The notes beneath the pieces were generated by a model, which saw only the letters and a list, made by a program, of their open reading frames with translations, searched no databases and was not told the DNA's origin. From positions 1 through 25,833 of IMG/VR virus record IMGVR_UViG_3300024308_000057: a DNA stretch of 25,833 nt; one strand, 5' to 3'. The stretch comes from a virus. The number at the start of each line of letters is the position of its first letter. Positions within the stretch are counted from its first letter, which is position 1. The position numbers were made by a program, and so were the translations under genes. Below, one piece after another: positions 4,178-24,161 of this stretch.

Positions 4178-4432
4178 CTAGGCTGCGCGGTTTACTTGGT
4201 CTTTTGCTGCTGCGTCGCGCTGTTTGTCGAGGTAGGCGGCTAGGTCGTTTACGTTAACCAACCACGGGGCTTTATTGCCTTCGCCGCCGCGAAAGGCGGG
4301 GACGGGCAAGCGGCCTGCTTTGGCGTAGTTCGCGGCGGTGCGTGGATCAAGGGCAAAAAACTCTTTGCTGATTTGTTCCAGCGGCACGATCACTTTGTTG
4401 AACTGGGCCATGAGTAGTAATGCGGTGTTCAT
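4178..4432 (-). CDS. PrtN-family pyocin-activator-like DNA-binding protein
   Basis: An 84-aa protein with the PrtN layout: MNTALLLMAQFNKVIVPLEQ, then FFALDPRTAANYAKAG (a winged-helix-like turn), then GRLPVPAFR and a C-terminal WLVNVNDLAAYLDKQRD helix. Pseudomonas PrtN activates pyocin genes by binding P boxes, but phage members of this family are short and could equally act as excisionase-like or transcription factors. The family call rests on remembered motifs and is fairly strong; the role here is inferred. The ATG overlaps the stop of the 56-aa gene upstream (ATGA), so the two are coupled. Confidence 0.75.
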   Translation of the reverse strand: MNTALLLMAQFNKVIVPLEQISKEFFALDPRTAANYAKAGRLPVPAFRGGEGNKAPWLVNVNDLAAYLDKQRDAAAKDQVNRAA

Positions 4433-7398: not shown

Positions 7399-8091
7399 TT
7401 AAATTAGTACCGAGTACCAAAACACTTTGCCGATGATTTTGATGTGCTTGAGCTGTTCTAAGCTGATATGTTCATCTGGCCATTCGTCTATGTTGTAGCT
7501 GCGTAGGCGGATGCCGCCACCTGGGAGCTTGTAGAGCATTTTTACTCTTAGCATGCCATCGTGATTAATGGCGTACATTTTCCCGTCCACAATATCGGTG
7601 TGTGAGGTGTCCACGCCGACGGTTGATCCGTGGGGTAATACGGGTTCCATGCTGTTGCCGTTGACTTTTACGCATACCGCATCGGCAGCGCTGACACCTT
7701 GACGCCTCAGGGTGGATTTAGCAAAACGCAATTTGGGGCCGTAGTATTCACGAATATCCGTTACCCCTGCACCCGCTGCGAGTTCTACTTCCATGTAAAA
7801 CGGTATCTCCACTTCGTCGTCACCAAGCGGGCTATTTCTATCCCACGTTTCAAAACCGCCAATAAATTCAGCGTTTGATTCTGGCTTGGTTTGCTTTTCT
7901 TCACCATACAAAAGCCATTCAGAAGAACAGTTTAAAGATTTTGCCAAGGCGTAAAGGTTTTCGCCCTTGGGTGAGGTTGCTCCTGCTTCCCAAAGCGAAA
8001 TAGTGGCTTTAGTTACGCCAATCATTTTACCAAGCGCTGGCTGAGTAAGCCTGTTAGCTTTGCGTCTTTCTTTAATTCGTTCATTCATCAT
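7399..8091 (-). CDS. cI: CI-type repressor, XRE HTH plus S24 LexA-like protease
   Basis: A 230-aa lambda/LexA-type repressor that keeps lysis and replication genes silent. The N-terminus is a helix-turn-helix (about 16-50: LTQPALGKMIGVTKATISLW). The C-terminal S24 domain carries the autocleavage site A106-G107 in ELAAGAGV, the catalytic serine S147 (GNSMEP) and lysine K184 (LRVKMLY). SOS-activated RecA should trigger self-cleavage and induction. The start at 8091 is followed immediately by a second ATG and has no strong ribosome site, as is common for CI mRNAs with short or no leader. Two small genes are downstream; the Cro-like gene is divergent, with operators between. The assignment is firm. 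Confidence 0.95.
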   Translation of the reverse strand: MMNERIKERRKANRLTQPALGKMIGVTKATISLWEAGATSPKGENLYALAKSLNCSSEWLLYGEEKQTKPESNAEFIGGFETWDRNSPLGDDEVEIPFYMEVELAAGAGVTDIREYYGPKLRFAKSTLRRQGVSAADAVCVKVNGNSMEPVLPHGSTVGVDTSHTDIVDGKMYAINHDGMLRVKMLYKLPGGGIRLRSYNIDEWPDEHISLEQLKHIKIIGKVFWYSVLI

Positions 8092-8180: not shown

Positions 8181-8209
8181 CATCAAAGGTCACTTTTCGG
8201 AGTTAATTG

Positions 8210-8404
8210 ATGAAAACAAAAGATGCAATTACGCACTTTGGTAACAAAGCAAAACTCGCAAAAGCACTGAACATTTCAAAGTCTGCAATTACGCAATGGC
8301 CTGATGACGTTCCTGCGCTGCGCGCTTTTCAAATTGAGCGGTTAACCAATGGAAAGCTGAAGGCGGGGGCGTTACAGCTGCCGAATGCTGACCACGCGGC
8401 TTAA
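8210..8404 (+). CDS. cro: P22-Cro-like repressor
   Basis: The 64-aa product MKTKDAITHFGNKAKLAKAL, then NISKSAITQWPDDVP, closely follows the P22 Cro pattern (DVIDHFG...VAKALGIS...AVSQW), a helix-turn-helix over about residues 10-35. It should bind the operators between itself and CI and favour lytic growth. The ATG at 8210 is chosen over a TTG one codon upstream because GGAG lies 7 nt before it. It is the first rightward gene, divergent from cI, followed by the YdaT/CII-like gene. Confidence 0.85.
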   Translation: MKTKDAITHFGNKAKLAKALNISKSAITQWPDDVPALRAFQIERLTNGKLKAGALQLPNADHAA

Positions 8405-8443: not shown

Positions 8444-9058
8444 ATGAAACCACAATCACGTTTGAATTTATTGATGAAAACCATCCATCGGGTACTTGAG
8501 TTGCCGAAGATGAGCCGTTTTGGGCTGGCGATGGATTTTGTAGCGGCGGTTGATCGCCTTGGGCTTAACGAGGTGTTAGCGGCTGAGGGGATTAATTTTG
8601 CCCGTACCGATGATGTGCATAACAACGCCCGGGTAAATGCGCAAAAGCTGTTCCGTTGGCTGGGGCAGTATGAAGGGCAGCATCCGCAGGTTGAACGGCT
8701 GTTTTACGTTGAGCAAGCCCTTGTGGCGGCGTTACCTGAGCATTTGCGAGTGCAGTATCTCAACGATGTGTTTGGTTGCGCTGGGGTGACGGTGATTGCT
8801 GATTCGATTCGTGATGGGCATGTGCTGCGGGTGGTTGATATGGCCGCAACGCTGACCAAAGAGAACTGTGAGGCGCAAGTGGCAGTGATTCACTTAGGCC
8901 AAGAGCCTTCACGCGAGCAGCTGATGCATGCTCACCGTGAGTTGCGTGAATCTGCCGCTACGACTCAGGCAAGCATGGCAGCGCTTGAATTGGCTTATCC
9001 GTTTTTGGCGAATAAGACCGAACTACGCAAGAACGAGAGAGTTGCCGATGTCGGATAA
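8444..9058 (+). CDS. YdaT/CII-like transcription regulator
   Basis: A 204-aa protein in the place of CII (after cro, before O). A central stretch, NNARVNAQKLFRWLGQYEGQ followed by a helix with VEQALVAALPEHLRVQYLND, resembles my recollection of E. coli YdaT (ARNTQKIFRW... and AIEKAMPPLLVARMR). YdaT was first described as a toxin and later shown to be a CII-like activator in the YdaS/YdaT pair. The N-terminal helices (about 1-50) would carry the HTH; the C-terminal helix is long and alanine-rich. AGAGAGG lies about 7-13 nt upstream. The similarity is judged by eye, so family membership is likely but not certain; overproduction may be toxic. Confidence 0.6.
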   Translation: MKPQSRLNLLMKTIHRVLELPKMSRFGLAMDFVAAVDRLGLNEVLAAEGINFARTDDVHNNARVNAQKLFRWLGQYEGQHPQVERLFYVEQALVAALPEHLRVQYLNDVFGCAGVTVIADSIRDGHVLRVVDMAATLTKENCEAQVAVIHLGQEPSREQLMHAHRELRESAATTQASMAALELAYPFLANKTELRKNERVADVG

Positions 9059-9685: not shown

Positions 9686-10582
9686 ATGGTACTTGAAACA
9701 AGTAATTGCGTCAATTTTGACGCGGGCAATAGCAATGTGGTGCATTTGCGGCCACTGACTGATCACAGTGCTAAGCGGGGTGATGTGGTGAAGGCAGATC
9801 TTGATGATGGTTATTTGAGGCTGTCAAACACGCTGGTTGATGCGTTGTGCTGCACCAAATTGAGCGATCGTGAGAGTCGTGTGGTATTTGCTGTGATGCG
9901 CAGAACCTACGGCTACGGTAAGGCTACTGATTGGGTTTGTTTAGAGCAATTGGCCGAGATGACGGGGATTTCGACTAGCAATATTTGCCATGCTATTCGC
10001 TCGCTCACCCAGCGTAATATTTTGATAAAAGATGGTCGTAAGTTAGGGGTGAATACGGTTGTTTCGGAGTGGAGTGCTAAGTTAACTCAGCCTGAAAACA
10101 GCAAAAAAAGCGTTGTCGAAACCGACAATTCGATTGTCGGAATTGACAACGCGATTGTCGAAATCGACAGCCCAGATTGTCGAAACCGAGAGATACAAAA
10201 GAAAGACAATATTACAAAAGACAATATAAATAATATTTGTCCGAAATCTGCGTTTAATCCCTTTTTCAAAATCTATCCAGCGCATCGCAAAGGCGGTAGT
10301 GATGCCCATTCTTGGAAGGTCTGGAAAGCTGAAAAGCTGACCGAGGCCGATTGTGAAGCTGCAATCATCTGGTTAACTCAAGCCGCTGCTGCGGATGCGA
10401 GTTGGCAAACTCATGCCAATGGGCAGTACGCGTTGGGTATCACTCGTTTTATCCGCGAACGCCATTGGTTAACGCCGTTGCCTAAGCCTGCTTTGCAAAA
10501 CTCACATTTGGATATTGCGAGTTATCACGATGCTGCATCGCGTTTTGATGCGGTGAACAGCCAGTTTAATACGGAGCTGTGA
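9686..10582 (+). CDS. O-type replication initiator containing the phage origin
   Basis: The ATG at 9686 has AGAGG 7 nt upstream and gives a 298-aa product. Residues about 37-120 match the phage replication protein O N-terminal domain: DDGYLRLSNTLVDALCCTKL, RTYGYGKATDWV, then a winged-helix segment LAEMTGISTSNICHAIRSLT. O binds origin iterons and recruits the helicase loader. The middle (about 140-185) is a repetitive acidic linker (IVGIDNAIVEIDS type) because the DNA there consists of iterons, exactly as in lambda O. The C-terminal part (FFKIYPAHRKGG onward) resembles the domain of many O homologues that contacts the loader. The stop overlaps the next start (TGATG). Confidence 0.9.
   Translation: MVLETSNCVNFDAGNSNVVHLRPLTDHSAKRGDVVKADLDDGYLRLSNTLVDALCCTKLSDRESRVVFAVMRRTYGYGKATDWVCLEQLAEMTGISTSNICHAIRSLTQRNILIKDGRKLGVNTVVSEWSAKLTQPENSKKSVVETDNSIVGIDNAIVEIDSPDCRNREIQKKDNITKDNINNICPKSAFNPFFKIYPAHRKGGSDAHSWKVWKAEKLTEADCEAAIIWLTQAAAADASWQTHANGQYALGITRFIRERHWLTPLPKPALQNSHLDIASYHDAASRFDAVNSQFNTEL
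10113..10190. other. replication origin iterons (four) within the O-type gene
   Basis: Four direct repeats starting TTGTCG at 10113, 10134, 10155 and 10177 (spacings 21, 21 and 22 bp). Each reads about TTGTCG-AAAY-CGACAA, and copy 1 is a perfect inverted repeat. This matches the lambda ori plan: four iterons in gene O followed by an AT-rich segment. Confidence 0.85.
10191..10245. other. AT-rich DNA-unwinding segment of the origin
   Basis: Directly after the iterons. It is A-rich on the plus strand and contains AAAGACAAT, AAAAGACAATATAAATAAT and ATTTGTC. In lambda, the equivalent AT-rich stretch melts when O binds. Confidence 0.7.
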
Positions 10583-11319
10583 TGATGATGGATATGAGCC
10601 AAGAGGTTGATAAGTTACTAAAACGCCTTGGTTGCCCTGAGCATATCAAGCCTGATTCACCTGAGGTTTATCGTCAAAAATTCCGTGAGTTGCAGCGCCG
10701 TGATGAGCTGGAAAAATCAATTGAGCATCGTACTCGAGTAAATAACGCGCTGTTTGGTAAGAGCGGCCTAAATGCCCATTTTTTAAGTTGTTCGTTTGAG
10801 AATTATCAGGTTGAGCGAGTAGATCAGCGTAAGGCTTTGGAGGTGGCTAAGCGTTACGTGGAGAAGTTTTCGGAGTTGTCGGCACTCGGTAAGGGTTTTT
10901 TGTTTATCGGTACGCCTGGCACTGGCAAAAACCATTTAGCGGCGGCGATTGCGAATGCGTTGATGGCTAAACATCACTCGGTGGTGTTGTTGAGTGTGAT
11001 GGACCTATTTGCGCGGGTGCGTGAGAGCTATAACGACCGTTCACTGAGCGAGGAACGCTTGATTGCCGAGTTTATGCGGCCTGAGTTGTTGATTATCGAT
11101 GAGATTGGTTTGCAGCGCGGCAGTGTGGACGAAATGCTGTGGTTAACGCGAATTATCGATAAACGGCTGTATGGGCATAAATCGACTGGGTTTATTACCA
11201 ATCTTGCTCCCAATGAGTTGCAAAAGATGCTTGGCGAACGCGCTTATGAACGGCTGCTTGATGCTGCTACGGTGGCGGTGACGTTCAATTGGCCGAGTTA
11301 TCGCGGTAAGCGGGGGTGA
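10582..11319 (+). CDS. DnaC-like AAA+ helicase loader
   Basis: A 245-aa AAA+ protein. Walker A is GTPGTGKN (about 110-117), with the unusual Asn that is also found in E. coli DnaC, followed by HLAAAIANAL. Walker B is LLIIDEI (about 169-175). An arginine-finger-like GERAYERLLD and a C-terminal VTFNWPSYR complete the DnaC pattern. It should load the replicative helicase at the O-bound origin, the role of P in lambda. Several ATGs occur at the start; 10582 overlaps the O stop (TGATG), with GGAG 5 nt upstream, so starts at 10585 or 10588 remain possible. Confidence in function is high. Confidence 0.92.
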   Translation: MMMDMSQEVDKLLKRLGCPEHIKPDSPEVYRQKFRELQRRDELEKSIEHRTRVNNALFGKSGLNAHFLSCSFENYQVERVDQRKALEVAKRYVEKFSELSALGKGFLFIGTPGTGKNHLAAAIANALMAKHHSVVLLSVMDLFARVRESYNDRSLSEERLIAEFMRPELLIIDEIGLQRGSVDEMLWLTRIIDKRLYGHKSTGFITNLAPNELQKMLGERAYERLLDAATVAVTFNWPSYRGKRG

Positions 11320-11868: not shown

Positions 11869-13128
11869 ATGGCTAACGCGAGTGGTGTTGAAGTGGGTAA
11901 GTTGAATGATGCCGCGTTGCGCCGTTGGCTGCGTGGTGGGGTGACGCGGGATTATCGTGATCCGCAGTATCCTGAATTGCGTTTGCGGGCGACGACTGAC
12001 CGGAGCAAGGCCTCGGTGTTTTTGGTGGTGAATGAGGGAGGCAAGACGGTTTGGCAAAAGCAAGGGGTGTGGCCAAGCATGTGTATTAAGACGTTTTTAG
12101 ATCAACTGCCTGTGGTGATGGCTAAGCGTAGTGCGGGTGCGGAGGTATTGCGCGGTGAGTTTGCGACAGTGGTTGATTTGCTTGGCTGGTTTTTGGGGCA
12201 TATCGAGGGCAATGCTTCGTTTAGCCATAGTTGGCGGGCTAATTGTAAATCGGTGGTGAGTAAGCATTTGTTGGGGATGTTTGCTGATTTGCCGCTTGCT
12301 GAGCTTTCTTTTGTGGCGGTTGATCTGCGCTTGGTTAAGCCGATGTTGGCTGAGGGTTATTCAACTAACTATATCAAAAGTGCGGTTAAGGTGTTTAAGC
12401 GGGCGTTAAGTGCGGCGGCTGATTTGCGTTTGGTCGATGGCAATGCGCTGGCGGGCTATCGGGTGGAAATGAGTTTGAAGATGGGCCCGAGTGTTGGCAC
12501 TCAGTTGATGGAATCTGACTTAGCGCTGTTGTTTGCTGCGCTGCGTGATGCAGTGAGGCCTGTGGCGATGTTGTTTATGCTGATGCTGATGTTTGGTACT
12601 CGCATTAATGAAACTCGGTTAGCCAGATGGGAGCACTTTGCAGGTGATTATTGGTTTATTCCGGCATCGAATGCGAAGAACCGCCAAGAGCATAGATTGC
12701 CTTTAACACCTACGGCTAAGGCGTTGCTGAATCAGTATTTGCAGTGGCAGGTAAAGAGCGTGGGTAAGCGAGCATTTTTATTCGCGGGTGATGTTGGGGT
12801 GATTAGCATTCGTACTGCGCATTATTGGAGTGAACAAATTCGCTTTAAGGCGTTTACTTCTCATGCGCTTAGAAAGCTTTGCCGCACCATTATTGCGGAT
12901 ATGGGTGTAGATACGATGGTGGGTGAGCGGCTGCTTAATCATGCCTTGCCTGTGCTTTTGCGTACCTATGTTCACTCGACTTTAGATAAGGGTATGTTGA
13001 GTGCTCTTGATGCTTATCATGCTCATTTAATTTTGCGCGGTTTTAACGAGGTTGCGCCCGAGATAATCCCTAGATCAACCCTAGATCCTAAGAACACTCA
13101 AAGCCAGATGGCTAGCGGGTGGCTGTGA
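11869..13128 (+). CDS. tyrosine-type site-specific integrase
   Basis: A 419-aa tyrosine recombinase with an intact active site: R245 (GTRINETRLARW), K270 (NAKNRQEHRLPL), H332 and R335 (SHALRKLC), H358 (LLNHALP) and Y367 (RTYVHS). The N-terminal region (about 30-200) includes the arm-binding and core-binding domains. It should catalyse integration and excision. Unusually, it lies between the replication genes and the Q-like gene in the rightward operon, with no adjacent attP-like direct repeats or classical excisionase. The ATG has GGAGG 10 nt upstream. The stop overlaps a possible 19-codon ORF (TGATG). Identification is firm. Confidence 0.93.
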   Translation: MANASGVEVGKLNDAALRRWLRGGVTRDYRDPQYPELRLRATTDRSKASVFLVVNEGGKTVWQKQGVWPSMCIKTFLDQLPVVMAKRSAGAEVLRGEFATVVDLLGWFLGHIEGNASFSHSWRANCKSVVSKHLLGMFADLPLAELSFVAVDLRLVKPMLAEGYSTNYIKSAVKVFKRALSAAADLRLVDGNALAGYRVEMSLKMGPSVGTQLMESDLALLFAALRDAVRPVAMLFMLMLMFGTRINETRLARWEHFAGDYWFIPASNAKNRQEHRLPLTPTAKALLNQYLQWQVKSVGKRAFLFAGDVGVISIRTAHYWSEQIRFKAFTSHALRKLCRTIIADMGVDTMVGERLLNHALPVLLRTYVHSTLDKGMLSALDAYHAHLILRGFNEVAPEIIPRSTLDPKNTQSQMASGWL

Positions 13129-13402: not shown

Positions 13403-13775
13403 AAACCAGTTGCGTGAATGGAATAAACGCAGGGATTTGCGGGAGGATTTTACCAATATGGCCGCGTTGCGTGCTGGCCTAACTACCTGGGGACGCTATT
13501 GGGCATTCCAAGAACTAGGACGCAGCTATGGCAACCGCAGCGCCTGCGATAAGTTGGGCGATCCTGTGTCGCGTGGTGGTGCTGTGGTACATGAGCTTAA
13601 TGTGCCTAAGCATGTAGCCCAATACGACCTAGTGATTGAACGGCTATCGATAAACTGTAAGCGCGCTATCCGTGCTCAGTATGTATGTAAAGGCCAATGG
13701 GCACTGATGGGGTTCGATAGTAAGAAGTCTTATATCTACTGGCTCAGACGAGCCGAAATGCAATTAGTAAAGTGA
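13389..13775 (+). CDS. Q-like late antiterminator
   Basis: The ATG at 13389 follows GGGGG and gives 128 aa: MEPSKNQLREWNKRRDLRED onward. The segment LTTWGRYWAFQELGRSYGNR, then VPKHVAQYDLVIERLSINCK and a final helix FDSKKSYIYWLRRAEMQLVK, matches the overall pattern of phage antitermination Q proteins with a C-terminal sigma-region-4-like HTH. It sits just upstream of the lysis/head operon and of a terminator at 15027-15054, the expected Q target. By eye the family match is moderate. Other late regulators are possible alternatives. Confidence 0.6.
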   Translation: MEPSKNQLREWNKRRDLREDFTNMAALRAGLTTWGRYWAFQELGRSYGNRSACDKLGDPVSRGGAVVHELNVPKHVAQYDLVIERLSINCKRAIRAQYVCKGQWALMGFDSKKSYIYWLRRAEMQLVK

Positions 13776-13783
13776 GGTGCGTG

Positions 13784-14398
13784 ATGGGACAATTCTTTTT
13801 GTTTGGTGATTTAGAAACGGGTGGGCTTAACGGCCGTCTAGATAATGGTCATTTGGGTATGGAGTATTACCCTATCTTTGAGCTGGCCTTTATCGTAACT
13901 GATAGTGAGTTAAACCAAGTTGGTGAAGCCTTGCATATTGTTGTGCATCAAGACGAAGATGTGATTGCAAGATCACATGAGTGGGCGCTAGATGTGCATA
14001 CCAAGAGCGGGTTGTTAGATGCTGTTCGTGCCTCATCAGTATCGTTAGTGCAGGCTGAGCAGATGGTTATTGAACACCTGAAAGCACTTGGAATACCTAA
14101 GTATGACCGTAAAACTAAGACTGGTGTAGTGTTTGCTGGTAACTCAATCATGTTCGATCGGTCATATATCATGTGCCAAATGCCTGAACTGCATGAGTAC
14201 ATGCATTACAGACAGTTAGATATATCGGCGATAGCCATGGCAGCAAGAGCATGGGCGCCTGATGTTGAACGTAATGCAGTTGAGGCTAAGCAGTATCAGC
14301 ATGAAGCCTTAGCCGATATTCGGGAGTCGATAGCGGAACTCAAATACTATCGAGATGAGTTGTTTGGTGTGGAAGCCTTTGCTTTATCAATCGACTAA
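13784..14398 (+). CDS. phage oligoribonuclease (Orn-like DEDDh 3'-5' exonuclease)
   Basis: A 204-aa protein with the DEDDh layout: D9-x-E11 (LFGDLETGGL), D125 (GNSIMFDRSYI), H173 and D178 (HEALADIRES). Orn-type motifs are also seen: SEWALDVHTKSGL-like text at 64-77, a central CQMPELHEYMHYRQLDIS and ELKYYRDEL near the end, all as in bacterial oligoribonuclease. Orn degrades 2-5-nt RNAs and pGpG. Compared with E. coli Orn, the region after the first motif has an insert (about residues 15-30). AGGTG lies 4 nt before the ATG. A phage copy just before cos is unusual; it could salvage nucleotides or remove short RNA signals. The homology is firm and the purpose is inferred. Confidence 0.88.
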   Translation: MGQFFLFGDLETGGLNGRLDNGHLGMEYYPIFELAFIVTDSELNQVGEALHIVVHQDEDVIARSHEWALDVHTKSGLLDAVRASSVSLVQAEQMVIEHLKALGIPKYDRKTKTGVVFAGNSIMFDRSYIMCQMPELHEYMHYRQLDISAIAMAARAWAPDVERNAVEAKQYQHEALADIRESIAELKYYRDELFGVEAFALSID

Positions 14399-15064: not shown

Positions 15065-15484
15065 ATGGCTCGTGTCTCGCTTCGCAAAAAGGTTTACATC
15101 GCAGGCCCCATGACTGGGTTGATTGATTGCAATCGCCCTGAGTTTCATTTGGCCGCCGATGTTCAGCGCGAGCTTGGCCATATTGTACTTAACCCTGCAA
15201 CCATACCGGATGGATTAACCGAGCCAGAGTACATGGCAATTTGCTTGCCGATGTTGATGTGCTGCGACCGTATTTATCTGCTGGATAACTGGGCTAGCTC
15301 AAAAGGTGCCAAAGCGGAATATGCGCTGGCTAACAAACTTGGCTTAGAGATTGTTTTTCAAGATGGGGTGGATCATGAAATAGCGCTACTCGGTTTGCGG
15401 GGTGATCAATACCATGCTGATGGTCAAGGCTACAGGCCTAAGCCATGTCGCCATGTTTATCAAAATCCGCATGGTGATGACTAA
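15065..15484 (+). CDS. DUF4406 (nucleoside 2-deoxyribosyltransferase-like) protein
   Basis: A 139-aa protein beginning MARVSLRKKVYIAGPMTGLI. The KVYIAGPMTG start, NRPEFHLAADVQRELGHIVL, a proline turn and DRIYLLDNWASSKGAKAEYA, then LGLEIVF are the hallmarks of DUF4406, a family related to nucleoside deoxyribosyltransferases. It could act on nucleotides or a base-sugar bond. The substrate is unknown and no experiment is recalled. The ATG lies 11 bp after the terminator, with weak GGTG as ribosome site. It is the first gene of the late operon, upstream of lysis genes. Confidence 0.85.
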   Translation: MARVSLRKKVYIAGPMTGLIDCNRPEFHLAADVQRELGHIVLNPATIPDGLTEPEYMAICLPMLMCCDRIYLLDNWASSKGAKAEYALANKLGLEIVFQDGVDHEIALLGLRGDQYHADGQGYRPKPCRHVYQNPHGDD

Positions 15485-20560: not shown

Positions 20561-22159
20561 ATGAGCATTATCAACGATGCGCTGGCGCTGTTTTCACCGG
20601 CGTGGGCACTCAAGCGCGAAGCGGCGGCCATGAGCTATCGCGGCCTAAAAGACCATTCTATAAACGCCTATGAAGCCGCCAACCCAAGCCGCACTCACCG
20701 TGCTCAAAAGGAAAGTCGCGGCGCCAACCAAGCGGTATTTGCGGCGGGTAAAAGCCTGCGCGAGCAAGCCCGTTGGTTAGATGAAAACCACGACTTAAGT
20801 ATCGGCATATTAGACCGCTTTGAAGAACGGGTTATCGGTGCTCAAGGGATTGTGGTTGAACCGCAGCCGCGCAGTATGAGCGGCGAAATCTTGGACGAAC
20901 TCGCCAATGATATTCAGCGCCGTTTCGCCACTTGGTCGCTTAAGTGTGATGTTACAGGCCGCTTTAGTCGCCCAGAGCTTGAGCGCTTAGTGCTGCGTAG
21001 CGCACTGCGTGATGGTGACGTATTCGGTCAGCATGTGATGGGGCGCGTTAGCAAGTTTGGTCATCCAAACGAGCAGGGCACCCAATACAGCATCGAAGCG
21101 TTAGAAGCCGACTTTATTCCCTACGAGTTAAACGAACCCGCAAATCGGGTACGCCAAGGGCTTGAGGTTAACGCTTGGGGCCAAGTGATTAACTATCACG
21201 TATTGCTTGATCACCCCGCTGATCAAGTCGGTTTTCGACACAAAACAAAACCGATACCCGCATCAAATATGATGCACCTCGGTTTATTCAAGCGATTGCA
21301 CCAGCTGCGCGGCGTGTCGATATTCCACGGCATTTTAACCCGCTTAGCAGACATTAAAGACTATGAAGAATCCGAGCGCGTAGCCGCAAGGATAGCCGCT
21401 GCGCTGGCGTTTTATATCAAGCGTGGTGATGCTCAAAGCTATGTTCATGATCAAAGTAATGAATCCAGCAGTCGCGAAATCCCCATTGCACCAGGCATGA
21501 CGTTTGACGATTTAAAGCCCGGTGAAGATGTCGGGATGATTGAATCAAATCGCCCCAACGTCCACATGGTGGAGTTTCGCAACGGTCAAATGAAAGCCGT
21601 CGCAGCGGGTAGCCGTGGCAGTTACTCGAGTATATCGCGCGACTACAAAGGCAGTTATTCAAGCCAGCGCCAAGAGCTGGTTGAGCAAGACGAATCCAAC
21701 CGCATTATGCAGCAATGGTTTTGTGCCGGTTGGTCGCGCCCAGTGTTTCGTAACTTCTTAAAAATGGAAATGCTCAACAAGCAAGACCCATTAGTGCTAC
21801 CGCCCGATCTCGACCTGCGCACGTTGTTCGATGCTGTGTACTACGGCCCAACTATGCCGTGGATTGACCCGCGCAAAGAGGCCGAAGGTTGGGAAATGAT
21901 GATTGCAGCCAACGTAGCTACTGAAGCCGATTGGACACGCGCCCGAGGCCGTAACCCAACCGAAGTGAAGCGCCAGCGTAAACGCGAGGTGGAATACAAC
22001 CGTCAAAACCACATGGTGACCGCCAACGACCCCGACCCATCGCTAGGAGATCCAAATAGTGAAAAAGACCCCAATAGCAGTAGCGGTAGCAACGCTAAGC
22101 GCAATGCTGCCAAACGGAACGCTGATCGCGCCCGCCGCAACGCTGAGCCAGATCAGTAA
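20561..22159 (+). CDS. portal protein, lambda gpB-type
   Basis: A 532-aa protein of the lambda portal family: SRGANQAVFAAGKSLREQAR, LDENHDLSIGILDRFEERVI, LRDGDVFGQHVMGRVSKFGH, then a clip/wing region with MMHLGLFKRLHQLRGVSIFH and EQDESNRIMQQWFCAGWSRP. A dodecameric portal channels DNA into the head and nucleates head assembly. The C-terminal tail is charged and repetitive (KRNAAKRNADRARRNAEPDQ) and overlaps the next gene by about 100 nt. AGAGG lies 6 nt before the ATG. Confidence 0.96.
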   Translation: MSIINDALALFSPAWALKREAAAMSYRGLKDHSINAYEAANPSRTHRAQKESRGANQAVFAAGKSLREQARWLDENHDLSIGILDRFEERVIGAQGIVVEPQPRSMSGEILDELANDIQRRFATWSLKCDVTGRFSRPELERLVLRSALRDGDVFGQHVMGRVSKFGHPNEQGTQYSIEALEADFIPYELNEPANRVRQGLEVNAWGQVINYHVLLDHPADQVGFRHKTKPIPASNMMHLGLFKRLHQLRGVSIFHGILTRLADIKDYEESERVAARIAAALAFYIKRGDAQSYVHDQSNESSSREIPIAPGMTFDDLKPGEDVGMIESNRPNVHMVEFRNGQMKAVAAGSRGSYSSISRDYKGSYSSQRQELVEQDESNRIMQQWFCAGWSRPVFRNFLKMEMLNKQDPLVLPPDLDLRTLFDAVYYGPTMPWIDPRKEAEGWEMMIAANVATEADWTRARGRNPTEVKRQRKREVEYNRQNHMVTANDPDPSLGDPNSEKDPNSSSGSNAKRNAAKRNADRARRNAEPDQ

Positions 22160-24161
22160 CAGCTCACAACCAAGCCAAAGCTGGTACAGCCTCAAGGCAC
22201 AAAACGGTAACGCTGAGCTAATGATTTATGACGAGATTGGCGGTTGGGGTATTAGTGCCCAACAGTTCGCCCGTGATCTCAAAAATCTAGGCAAAGTCGG
22301 TACCATCACCGCCCGTATTCATTCGCCTGGTGGGGATGTGTTCGAAGGGATGGCGATTTACAACATGATCAAAGGCCACCCAGCGCACAAGGTCTGTTAT
22401 ATCGATGGCCTAGCGGCATCAATGGCCAGTGTGATCGCCATGGCGTTTGATGAAATCATCATGCCTGAAAACGCCATGATGATGATCCACAAGCCTTGGG
22501 GCGGAACCCTAGGTGATGCGGATGATATGCGCAAATACGCCGATTTACTCGACAAAGTGGAAGGTAACTTAGTCGGTGCTTATCAACAAAAAACAGGCTT
22601 ACCCGAAGATGAGCTTCACGCCCTATTAGCCGCTGAAACATGGCTAACAGGCCGCGAGGCAGTGGAAAAAGGTTTTGCCAATACCCTAACCGATCCGCTG
22701 CAAATGGCGGCATCACTTAATTCAAAACGTCTTAAGGATTTTACGAATATGCCTGAACATCTAAAAAACCTGTTTGCACCAAAGGGAAATATTCCTTCGT
22801 CTGCACCAGCACCACAACCAGCCCCTGCGCCAAGTGCTCAGGTTCCCGCACCAGCAAACCAACCCGCGCCCGCTGCTCAACCTGATGCCGCGGCTATTCA
22901 AGCGGCGGCGATTGCATTTAATACCGCGCGTATTAATGGCATTAACACGGCGTTTGCGGCATTCCCGCAACTGGCCGAGTTAAAGAATCAGTGTATCGCT
23001 GATGCGTCCATTGATGCCGATAAAGCCAAAGATATGATCTTGGCAAAGCTTGGCGAAAACACCACGCCAGCGGCGACCATGCCAAATCGGGTGATTATCC
23101 ACTCTGGTAACGGCAATATCGTCGGTGACTCAATTCGCGCTCACCTGATGACCCGTGCAGGCCATGAAGAAGCCCAAGCGGATAACGGCTACGCCAGTTA
23201 TAACCTGCGCGAACTGGCGCGCGCTAGCTTGGTGGATCGTGGTATTGGTATCGCTAGCATGACTCCAATGCAAATGGTTGGCTTAGCCTTTACTCATTCA
23301 AGCTCTGACTTTGGTAGCATTCTGCTGGATGTGGCAAATAAGTCGGTATTGATGGGTTGGGAAACCGCCGAAGAAACCTTCGAGCGTTGGACTAAAAAAG
23401 GTCAACTAGGCGACTTTAAGATTGCGAAGCGTGTAGGCCTTGGTGACTTCAACAGCCTGCGTGAAGTGCGCGAAGGTGCGGAATACAAGTACGTCACCGT
23501 TGGTGATCACTCACAACAAATCGCCCTAGCGACTTATGGTGAGCTGTTCACTATTACTCGCCAAGCCATTATCAACGACGATATGAGTATGTTGACTGAT
23601 ATCCCGATGAAGATGGGTTTTGCCGCCAAAGGAACCATTGGTGACTTAGTTTATGCGGTGTTAACGCAAAATCCAAAACTGGCCGATGGTAAAGCGCTGT
23701 TCCATGCCGATCACGGCAACCTAGGCAGCGGTGCGCCCAGCGTGGCCAGCCTCGATGCGGCGCGTATGTTAATGCGTAAGCAGAAATCAGGTAATCGCAC
23801 CCTGAATATCCGCCCTGAGTTTGTACTGTGTCCGGTTGCGTTAGAAACCACCTTTAACCAGATCATCAAGTCGAGTTCTGTTAAGGGTGCCGATGTTAAC
23901 GCAGGTATCGCTAACCCGATCCAAAACTTTGCTGAAGTTATTGCTGAGGCTCGCCTCGATGATAGCAGCGCCGCCGCGTGGTTCCTCGCAGCAGGCCAAG
24001 GTCGCGACACCATCGAAGTGGCTTACCTCGATGGTATCGATACGCCTTACATCGAGCAGCAACAAGGCTTCACTATCGACGGCGTAGCGACCAAGGTGCG
24101 TATCGATGCCGGTGTAGCGCCACTGGATCACCGTGGCTTGGTGAAATCAACCGGCGTGTAA
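22059..24161 (+). CDS. ClpP-like prohead protease / scaffold / major capsid fusion
   Basis: The start is a GTG at 22059 with AGGAG 10 nt upstream, inside the portal gene. The 700-aa product has three parts. Residues about 40-230 are an S14 ClpP-like protease: IHSPGGDVFEGMAI, nucleophile S121 (GLAASMAS), H144 (MMIHKPWGG), and D165 as a likely third residue. Residues about 240-330 are a proline/alanine-rich linker and helical scaffold. Residues about 345-700 are a major capsid protein (IRAHLMTRAG..., ARASLVDRGIG, FHADHGNLGSG, NAGIANPIQNFAEV). Fusion of the protease and scaffold with the capsid is well known in related phages. An internal start at 22749 (AAGGA 10 nt upstream) may give a separate scaffold-capsid product, as lambda Nu3 lies within C. 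Confidence 0.92.
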   Translation: MKKTPIAVAVATLSAMLPNGTLIAPAATLSQISNSSQPSQSWYSLKAQNGNAELMIYDEIGGWGISAQQFARDLKNLGKVGTITARIHSPGGDVFEGMAIYNMIKGHPAHKVCYIDGLAASMASVIAMAFDEIIMPENAMMMIHKPWGGTLGDADDMRKYADLLDKVEGNLVGAYQQKTGLPEDELHALLAAETWLTGREAVEKGFANTLTDPLQMAASLNSKRLKDFTNMPEHLKNLFAPKGNIPSSAPAPQPAPAPSAQVPAPANQPAPAAQPDAAAIQAAAIAFNTARINGINTAFAAFPQLAELKNQCIADASIDADKAKDMILAKLGENTTPAATMPNRVIIHSGNGNIVGDSIRAHLMTRAGHEEAQADNGYASYNLRELARASLVDRGIGIASMTPMQMVGLAFTHSSSDFGSILLDVANKSVLMGWETAEETFERWTKKGQLGDFKIAKRVGLGDFNSLREVREGAEYKYVTVGDHSQQIALATYGELFTITRQAIINDDMSMLTDIPMKMGFAAKGTIGDLVYAVLTQNPKLADGKALFHADHGNLGSGAPSVASLDAARMLMRKQKSGNRTLNIRPEFVLCPVALETTFNQIIKSSSVKGADVNAGIANPIQNFAEVIAEARLDDSSAAAWFLAAGQGRDTIEVAYLDGIDTPYIEQQQGFTIDGVATKVRIDAGVAPLDHRGLVKSTGV

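What the first reader, a model, noticed from the sequence alone, without database searches (positions are those of the whole stretch)
10113..10245. Four-iteron replication origin inside the O gene
TTGTCG-AAAY-CGACAA repeats at 21, 21 and 22 bp are followed by an AT-rich tract, the full lambda ori plan but with a different iteron sequence. The 21-bp spacing puts all copies on one face of the helix, and the DNA repeat forces an acidic heptapeptide repeat in the O protein.
Basis: partly seen in the sequence, partly recalled or inferred. Interest (0 to 1): 0.6.

Follow-up and report, generated by a model that had tools for sequence, protein, structure and literature searches.

The report
Lambda-type phage replication origin in Shewanella
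A Shewanella phage carries its DNA-replication start site inside the gene for the protein that binds it, as phage lambda does, and comparison with relatives shows that the protein's DNA-reading helix and its target repeats are exchanged together as one block.

Summary
Four copies of a palindromic 16-mer (TTGTCG-AAAY-CGACAA; 0, 2, 1 and 2 mismatches) lie at 10113-10192, spaced 21, 21 and 22 bp, followed by an AT-rich tract (10193-10240). They sit inside a bona fide lambda O homologue (9686-10582, Pfam Phage_rep_O), upstream of a DnaC-like helicase loader. The interpretation as a lambda-type origin is well supported, though not biochemically shown. It is a new member of a known kind: lambda, phi80, P22 and phage L each have their own iterons inside the O gene. 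Two details need correcting. The fourth repeat is out of frame, so only three heptapeptides result. The 21-bp phasing is a subfamily trait, since the lambda/P22 class uses 20, 24, 23. Following it outward gave stronger evidence. (1) Near-identical Shewanella O genes differ by replacement of one block holding the recognition helix, wing and iterons, with iteron type changing along with the helix. (2) Across 65 O types, half-site differences track the recognition helix better than any other stretch of the domain. (3) The AT-rich tract holds a motif conserved far beyond the iterons (ACAAAAGA twice, usually starting 2 bp after the last iteron), read in all three frames. The C-terminus and loader change just downstream of it.

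The parts
9686..10582 (+). O-type replication initiator gene (298 aa): winged-helix origin-binding domain (residues ~36-129), linker holding the origin, C-terminal loader-contacting region
   Evidence: PF04492 E=5.4e-34 residues 36-129; phrog_2365/277; AlphaFold2 winged helix, pLDDT 83
9974..10012 (+). codons 97-109, predicted DNA-recognition helix (TSNICHAIRSLTQ)
   Evidence: helix H68-80 of the model = residues 97-109; peak of half-site correlation at residues 92-102
10113..10128 (+). iteron 1 TTGTCGAAACCGACAA
10134..10149 (+). iteron 2 TTGTCGGAATTGACAA
10155..10170 (+). iteron 3 TTGTCGAAATCGACAG
10177..10192 (+). iteron 4 TTGTCGAAACCGAGAG, right arm degraded, out of frame with the heptads
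10193..10240 (+). AT-rich tract, putative DNA unwinding element
   Evidence: 23% GC at 10190-10249
10195..10202 (+). conserved box 1 ACAAAAGA, 2 bp after iteron 4
10214..10221 (+). conserved box 2 ACAAAAGA
10579..11319 (+). DnaC-like helicase loader (AAA+)
   Evidence: phrog_50 E=5e-66; PF01695

Best explanation
This is the replication origin of a lambda-like temperate phage of Shewanella. An O-protein dimer binds each palindromic iteron through its winged-helix recognition helix (about residues 97-109). Four dimers form an O-some that strains and opens the adjacent AT-rich tract, and the O C-terminus recruits the phage's DnaC-like loader carrying host DnaB onto the opened strand. Shown here: gene identity, the array, its DNA-level conservation, and the co-inheritance of helix and iterons. 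Inferred from lambda: dimer binding, O-some formation, melting and helicase loading. The conserved ACAAAAGA boxes are probably where opening starts and may be recognised as sequence, not merely as AT-rich DNA (inference).
For: O homology. Array and AT tract. The same plan in lambda, phi80, P22 and others: of 149 distinct O genes, 95% score above the best of 40 shuffled controls. Block swap L011/L013: codons 1-80 and 177 onward about 87-100% identical over most of their length, codons 84-176 about 33-73%, iterons TTGTC..GACAA to CTGTC..GACAG and helix GITTSNICHAIKSL to EIDTDNVSRVISGL; similarly L007, TTATC..GATAA with helix GIYTTNICLAIKSL. Half-site distance correlates with the helix after controlling for the rest of the domain: the top 8 of 84 sliding windows all lie on residues 91-108. 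Model shows a winged helix with that helix in place. Synonymous resampling 0/300. Conserved boxes. Literature on lambda: PMC7466680, PMC3349717, PMC5043065; on P22 and L: PMC8022706.
Against: No direct binding, footprint or replication data for this phage. Copy 4 is degenerate, although iteron 4 is also among the weakest in lambda (PMC7466680). The record is a 25.8-kb contig with no tail genes seen, so another origin elsewhere in the genome cannot be excluded.
Confidence: 0.94

Rival explanations
1. The repeats are protein-level: a heptapeptide linker repeat in O, with the DNA similarity a by-product.
For: Three repeats are in frame and give VVETDNS/IVGIDNA/IVEIDSP.
Against: Copy 4 is out of frame yet conserved in DNA; synonymous resampling never reproduces the array; other O genes encode unrelated peptides but keep palindromic arrays.
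Confidence: 0.02
2. The repeats are operators for a regulator (CI, Cro or CII-like) lying inside O, autoregulating the operon.
For: Palindromic repeats can be operators; cI, cro and a CII-like gene are nearby.
Against: No copies near the cI/cro promoters or elsewhere in the record; iteron type changes together with the O recognition helix in otherwise near-identical genes.
Confidence: 0.02
3. The array is a vestigial origin that O still binds, while replication starts at another site in the unsequenced part of the phage.
For: The contig is incomplete; copy 4 is degenerate.
Against: The array, the AT tract and both boxes are intact and under DNA-level constraint; Shewanella relatives keep the same plan.
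Confidence: 0.02

Closest known systems
Phage lambda ori (ori-lambda, O and P proteins)
   Same: Origin inside the O gene, four palindromic iterons just after the winged-helix domain, AT-rich tract with two ACAAAAGA boxes 3' of the last iteron
   Different: Iteron half-site TTGTCG against TCCCTC; spacing 21,21,22 against 20,24,23; loader DnaC-like, not P
Phage phi80 origin (gp15)
   Same: Four gp15 sites annotated at 20-21-21 bp in gene 15, 6-4-6 palindromes as here
   Different: Half-site TTCCCG; degenerate boxes; loader gp14 described as similar to lambda P
Phage P22 / HK97 origins (gp18 / gp54)
   Same: Iterons within the O-like gene and strong ACAAAAGA boxes
   Different: Half-sites TTTACC and TTAGCC; spacing 20,24,23; a DnaB-type helicase gene follows
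Shewanella prophage O genes (L005-L016)
   Same: About 50-74% protein identity over residues 1-184, same array position
   Different: Some carry other iterons (CTGTC, TTATC), some a lambda-type C-terminus and a P-like loader

Membership tests
Lambda-type (O-protein) phage origin | Initiator belongs to Phage_rep_O | tested here: met
   PF04492 117 bits, cut-off 28.7
Lambda-type (O-protein) phage origin | Array of palindromic iterons inside the initiator gene, 3' of the DNA-binding domain | tested here: met
Lambda-type (O-protein) phage origin | AT-rich tract next to the last iteron | tested here: met
Lambda-type (O-protein) phage origin | Helicase loader or helicase gene directly downstream | tested here: met
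   DnaC-like, phrog_50
Lambda-type (O-protein) phage origin | O binds the iterons as dimers and melts the AT tract | not testable with these tools
   needs footprinting and open-complex assays
Lambda-type (O-protein) phage origin | Replication starts here in vivo | not testable with these tools
   needs marker-frequency or plasmid test
Iteron plasmid origin (Rep_3/RepE type) | Rep-family initiator with direct, non-palindromic iterons bound by monomers | tested here: not met
   the initiator matches only Phage_rep_O in Pfam and the iterons are palindromic

The most novel reading that the evidence does not exclude
The ACAAAAGA double box, usually 2 bp after the last iteron, is a family-wide element of O-type origins recognised as sequence during opening. 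It also acts as the conserved junction at which two interchangeable modules meet: a specificity cassette (recognition helix + wing + iterons) and a loader cassette (O C-terminus + P, DnaC-like or helicase gene). Origin specificity would then evolve by swapping a roughly 280-bp self-matching cassette.
Probability: 0.4. Interest if true: 0.6.

Novelty: new member of a known kind. Interest (0 to 1): 0.42.

Why it matters
As an origin it is ordinary for lambda-like phages. Its value lies in the comparison: nearly identical Shewanella O genes with three iteron types are a natural swap experiment from which the O-iteron recognition code can be read and tested (for example H102 to L with G to A in the half-site). 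The strongly conserved boxes suggest that the AT-rich region of lambda-type origins carries sequence information and is not just easy to melt.

Tried and rejected
DNA-level search of phage records with the O-loader region: no match. PDB sequence searches found no credible solved relative (one hit at E=0.75). Fold search gave only generic winged-helix matches (CRP/FNR, MarR; best E 1.6e-3). Plain mutual information was confounded by ancestry (R73 and T49 ranked top), so a partial correlation against the rest of the domain was used. Searching papers for the box as text returned only unrelated hits among those shown. Rfam and tRNA scans of the window: nothing. Box counts from loci fetched by the box pattern itself were set aside as biased; the unbiased set is.

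Full report
WHAT IS THERE. The window is a whole 25,833-bp virus record, possibly a fragment of the phage genome. Its early region runs cI-like repressor (7399-8091, minus strand), cro (8207-8404), a CII-like gene (8444-9058), O (9686-10582) and a DnaC-like loader (10579-11319). O matches Pfam Phage_rep_O over residues 36-129 (E=5.4e-34). Just after that domain lie four copies of TTGTCG-AAAY-CGACAA at 10113, 10134, 10155 and 10177 (spacing 21, 21, 22), then an AT-rich tract (23% GC at 10190-10249). A scan with up to 3 mismatches finds 8 strand-wise matches against 0.5 expected, and there are no copies elsewhere in the record.

DNA OR PROTEIN REPEAT. Copies 1-3 are in frame and give VVETDNS/IVGIDNA/IVEIDSP; copy 4, one base further on, is out of frame and gives DCRNRE. 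Resampling synonymous codons for the same peptide gave a mean array score of 9.0 and a maximum of 15.0, against 18.0 observed (0 of 300). The selection is therefore on DNA.

RELATIVES. All near relatives with a named host are Shewanella (viral contigs). In Shewanella genomes 9 of 129 carry the family. Lambda, P22, phi80, HK97 and others were fetched from annotated records. A scan of 149 distinct O genes for palindromic arrays (six-base half-sites, spacer 4 or 5) in the 260 bp after the domain found arrays above the best of 40 shuffled controls in 95%. The phi80 record annotates four gp15 sites at 20-21-21 bp. That P22, L and lambda each have their own iterons within this gene has been stated in print (PMC8022706), as have the lambda layout and footprints (PMC7466680, PMC3349717, PMC5043065).

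HELIX AND ITERONS TRAVEL TOGETHER. L011 and L013 are nearly identical up to about codon 80 (90-100%) and similar again from codon 177 (about 87-100% over most of the rest), but only 33-73% identical across codons 84-176, the block that encodes the recognition helix, the wing and the iterons. With it the iterons change from TTGTC..GACAA to CTGTC..GACAG and the helix from GITTSNICHAIKSL to EIDTDNVSRVISGL. L007, whose flanking regions are again close to L011, has TTATC half-sites in all four copies and the helix GIYTTNICLAIKSL. Over 65 distinct helices, half-site distance was correlated with distance in each 11-residue stretch after controlling for the rest of the domain: the top eight stretches of 84 all fall on residues 91-108, with the best at 92-102 (partial r 0.30, median 0.10). 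Ancestry is reduced by this, not removed. AlphaFold2 on 42 aligned domains gives a winged helix (mean pLDDT 83) with a helix at residues 97-109.

THE AT-RICH TRACT IS A CONSERVED MOTIF. In 44 unbiased distinct O types, a first box ACAAAAGA with at most one mismatch follows the last iteron in 37, starting exactly 2 bp after it in 31; both boxes are present in 32 against 0.29 expected (maximum 2 in 200 shuffled sets). It is read in all three frames (27, 8 and 2 cases), so again DNA is conserved. Phi80-type origins have degenerate boxes. Repeats in the lambda AT region are mentioned in print (PMC4081077); I found no paper describing the family-wide motif, but the library searched lacks most subscription journals.

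TWO MODULES. The window and L007 share the sequence through the boxes and then diverge completely at the C-terminus. In Shewanella, TTGTC-type iterons occur with a DnaC-like loader (window) or a P-like loader (L005, PF06992), and CTGTC-type iterons likewise (L014/L015 and L013): all four combinations. In enterobacterial phages too, cassettes of the same type occur with different C-termini and the reverse.

VERDICT. A real, well-formed lambda-type origin with its own iteron: a new member of a known kind. Binding, melting and initiation are inferred from lambda. The added value is the natural swap set and the conserved boxes.

Noticed in passing
4178-4432 (-) and 11869-13128 (+): The excisionase-like gene (phrog_1300) lies about 7 kb from the tyrosine integrase, which sits just downstream of the replication genes; an unusual arrangement.
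   Followed up: no
22059-24161 (+): Head-maturation ClpP-type protease fused in one frame to a major capsid protein (700 aa; phrog_133, PF00574 + PF25209).
   Followed up: no
L007:3420-3500: All four iterons carry the same half-site change relative to relatives (TTATC in place of TTGTC), together with three recognition-helix changes.
   Followed up: partly
13772-14398 (+) and 15065-15484 (+): Exonuclease-like gene (phrog_192) and nucleoside 2-deoxyribosyltransferase-like gene (phrog_355) between the replication genes and the head genes.
   Followed up: no
L106 and L070 (O genes): Helix RLPRQKVN goes with GTCACC half-sites and GLSRQNVN with GTCTCT: a K/N difference in the helix core pairs with A/T at half-site position 4.
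   Followed up: partly
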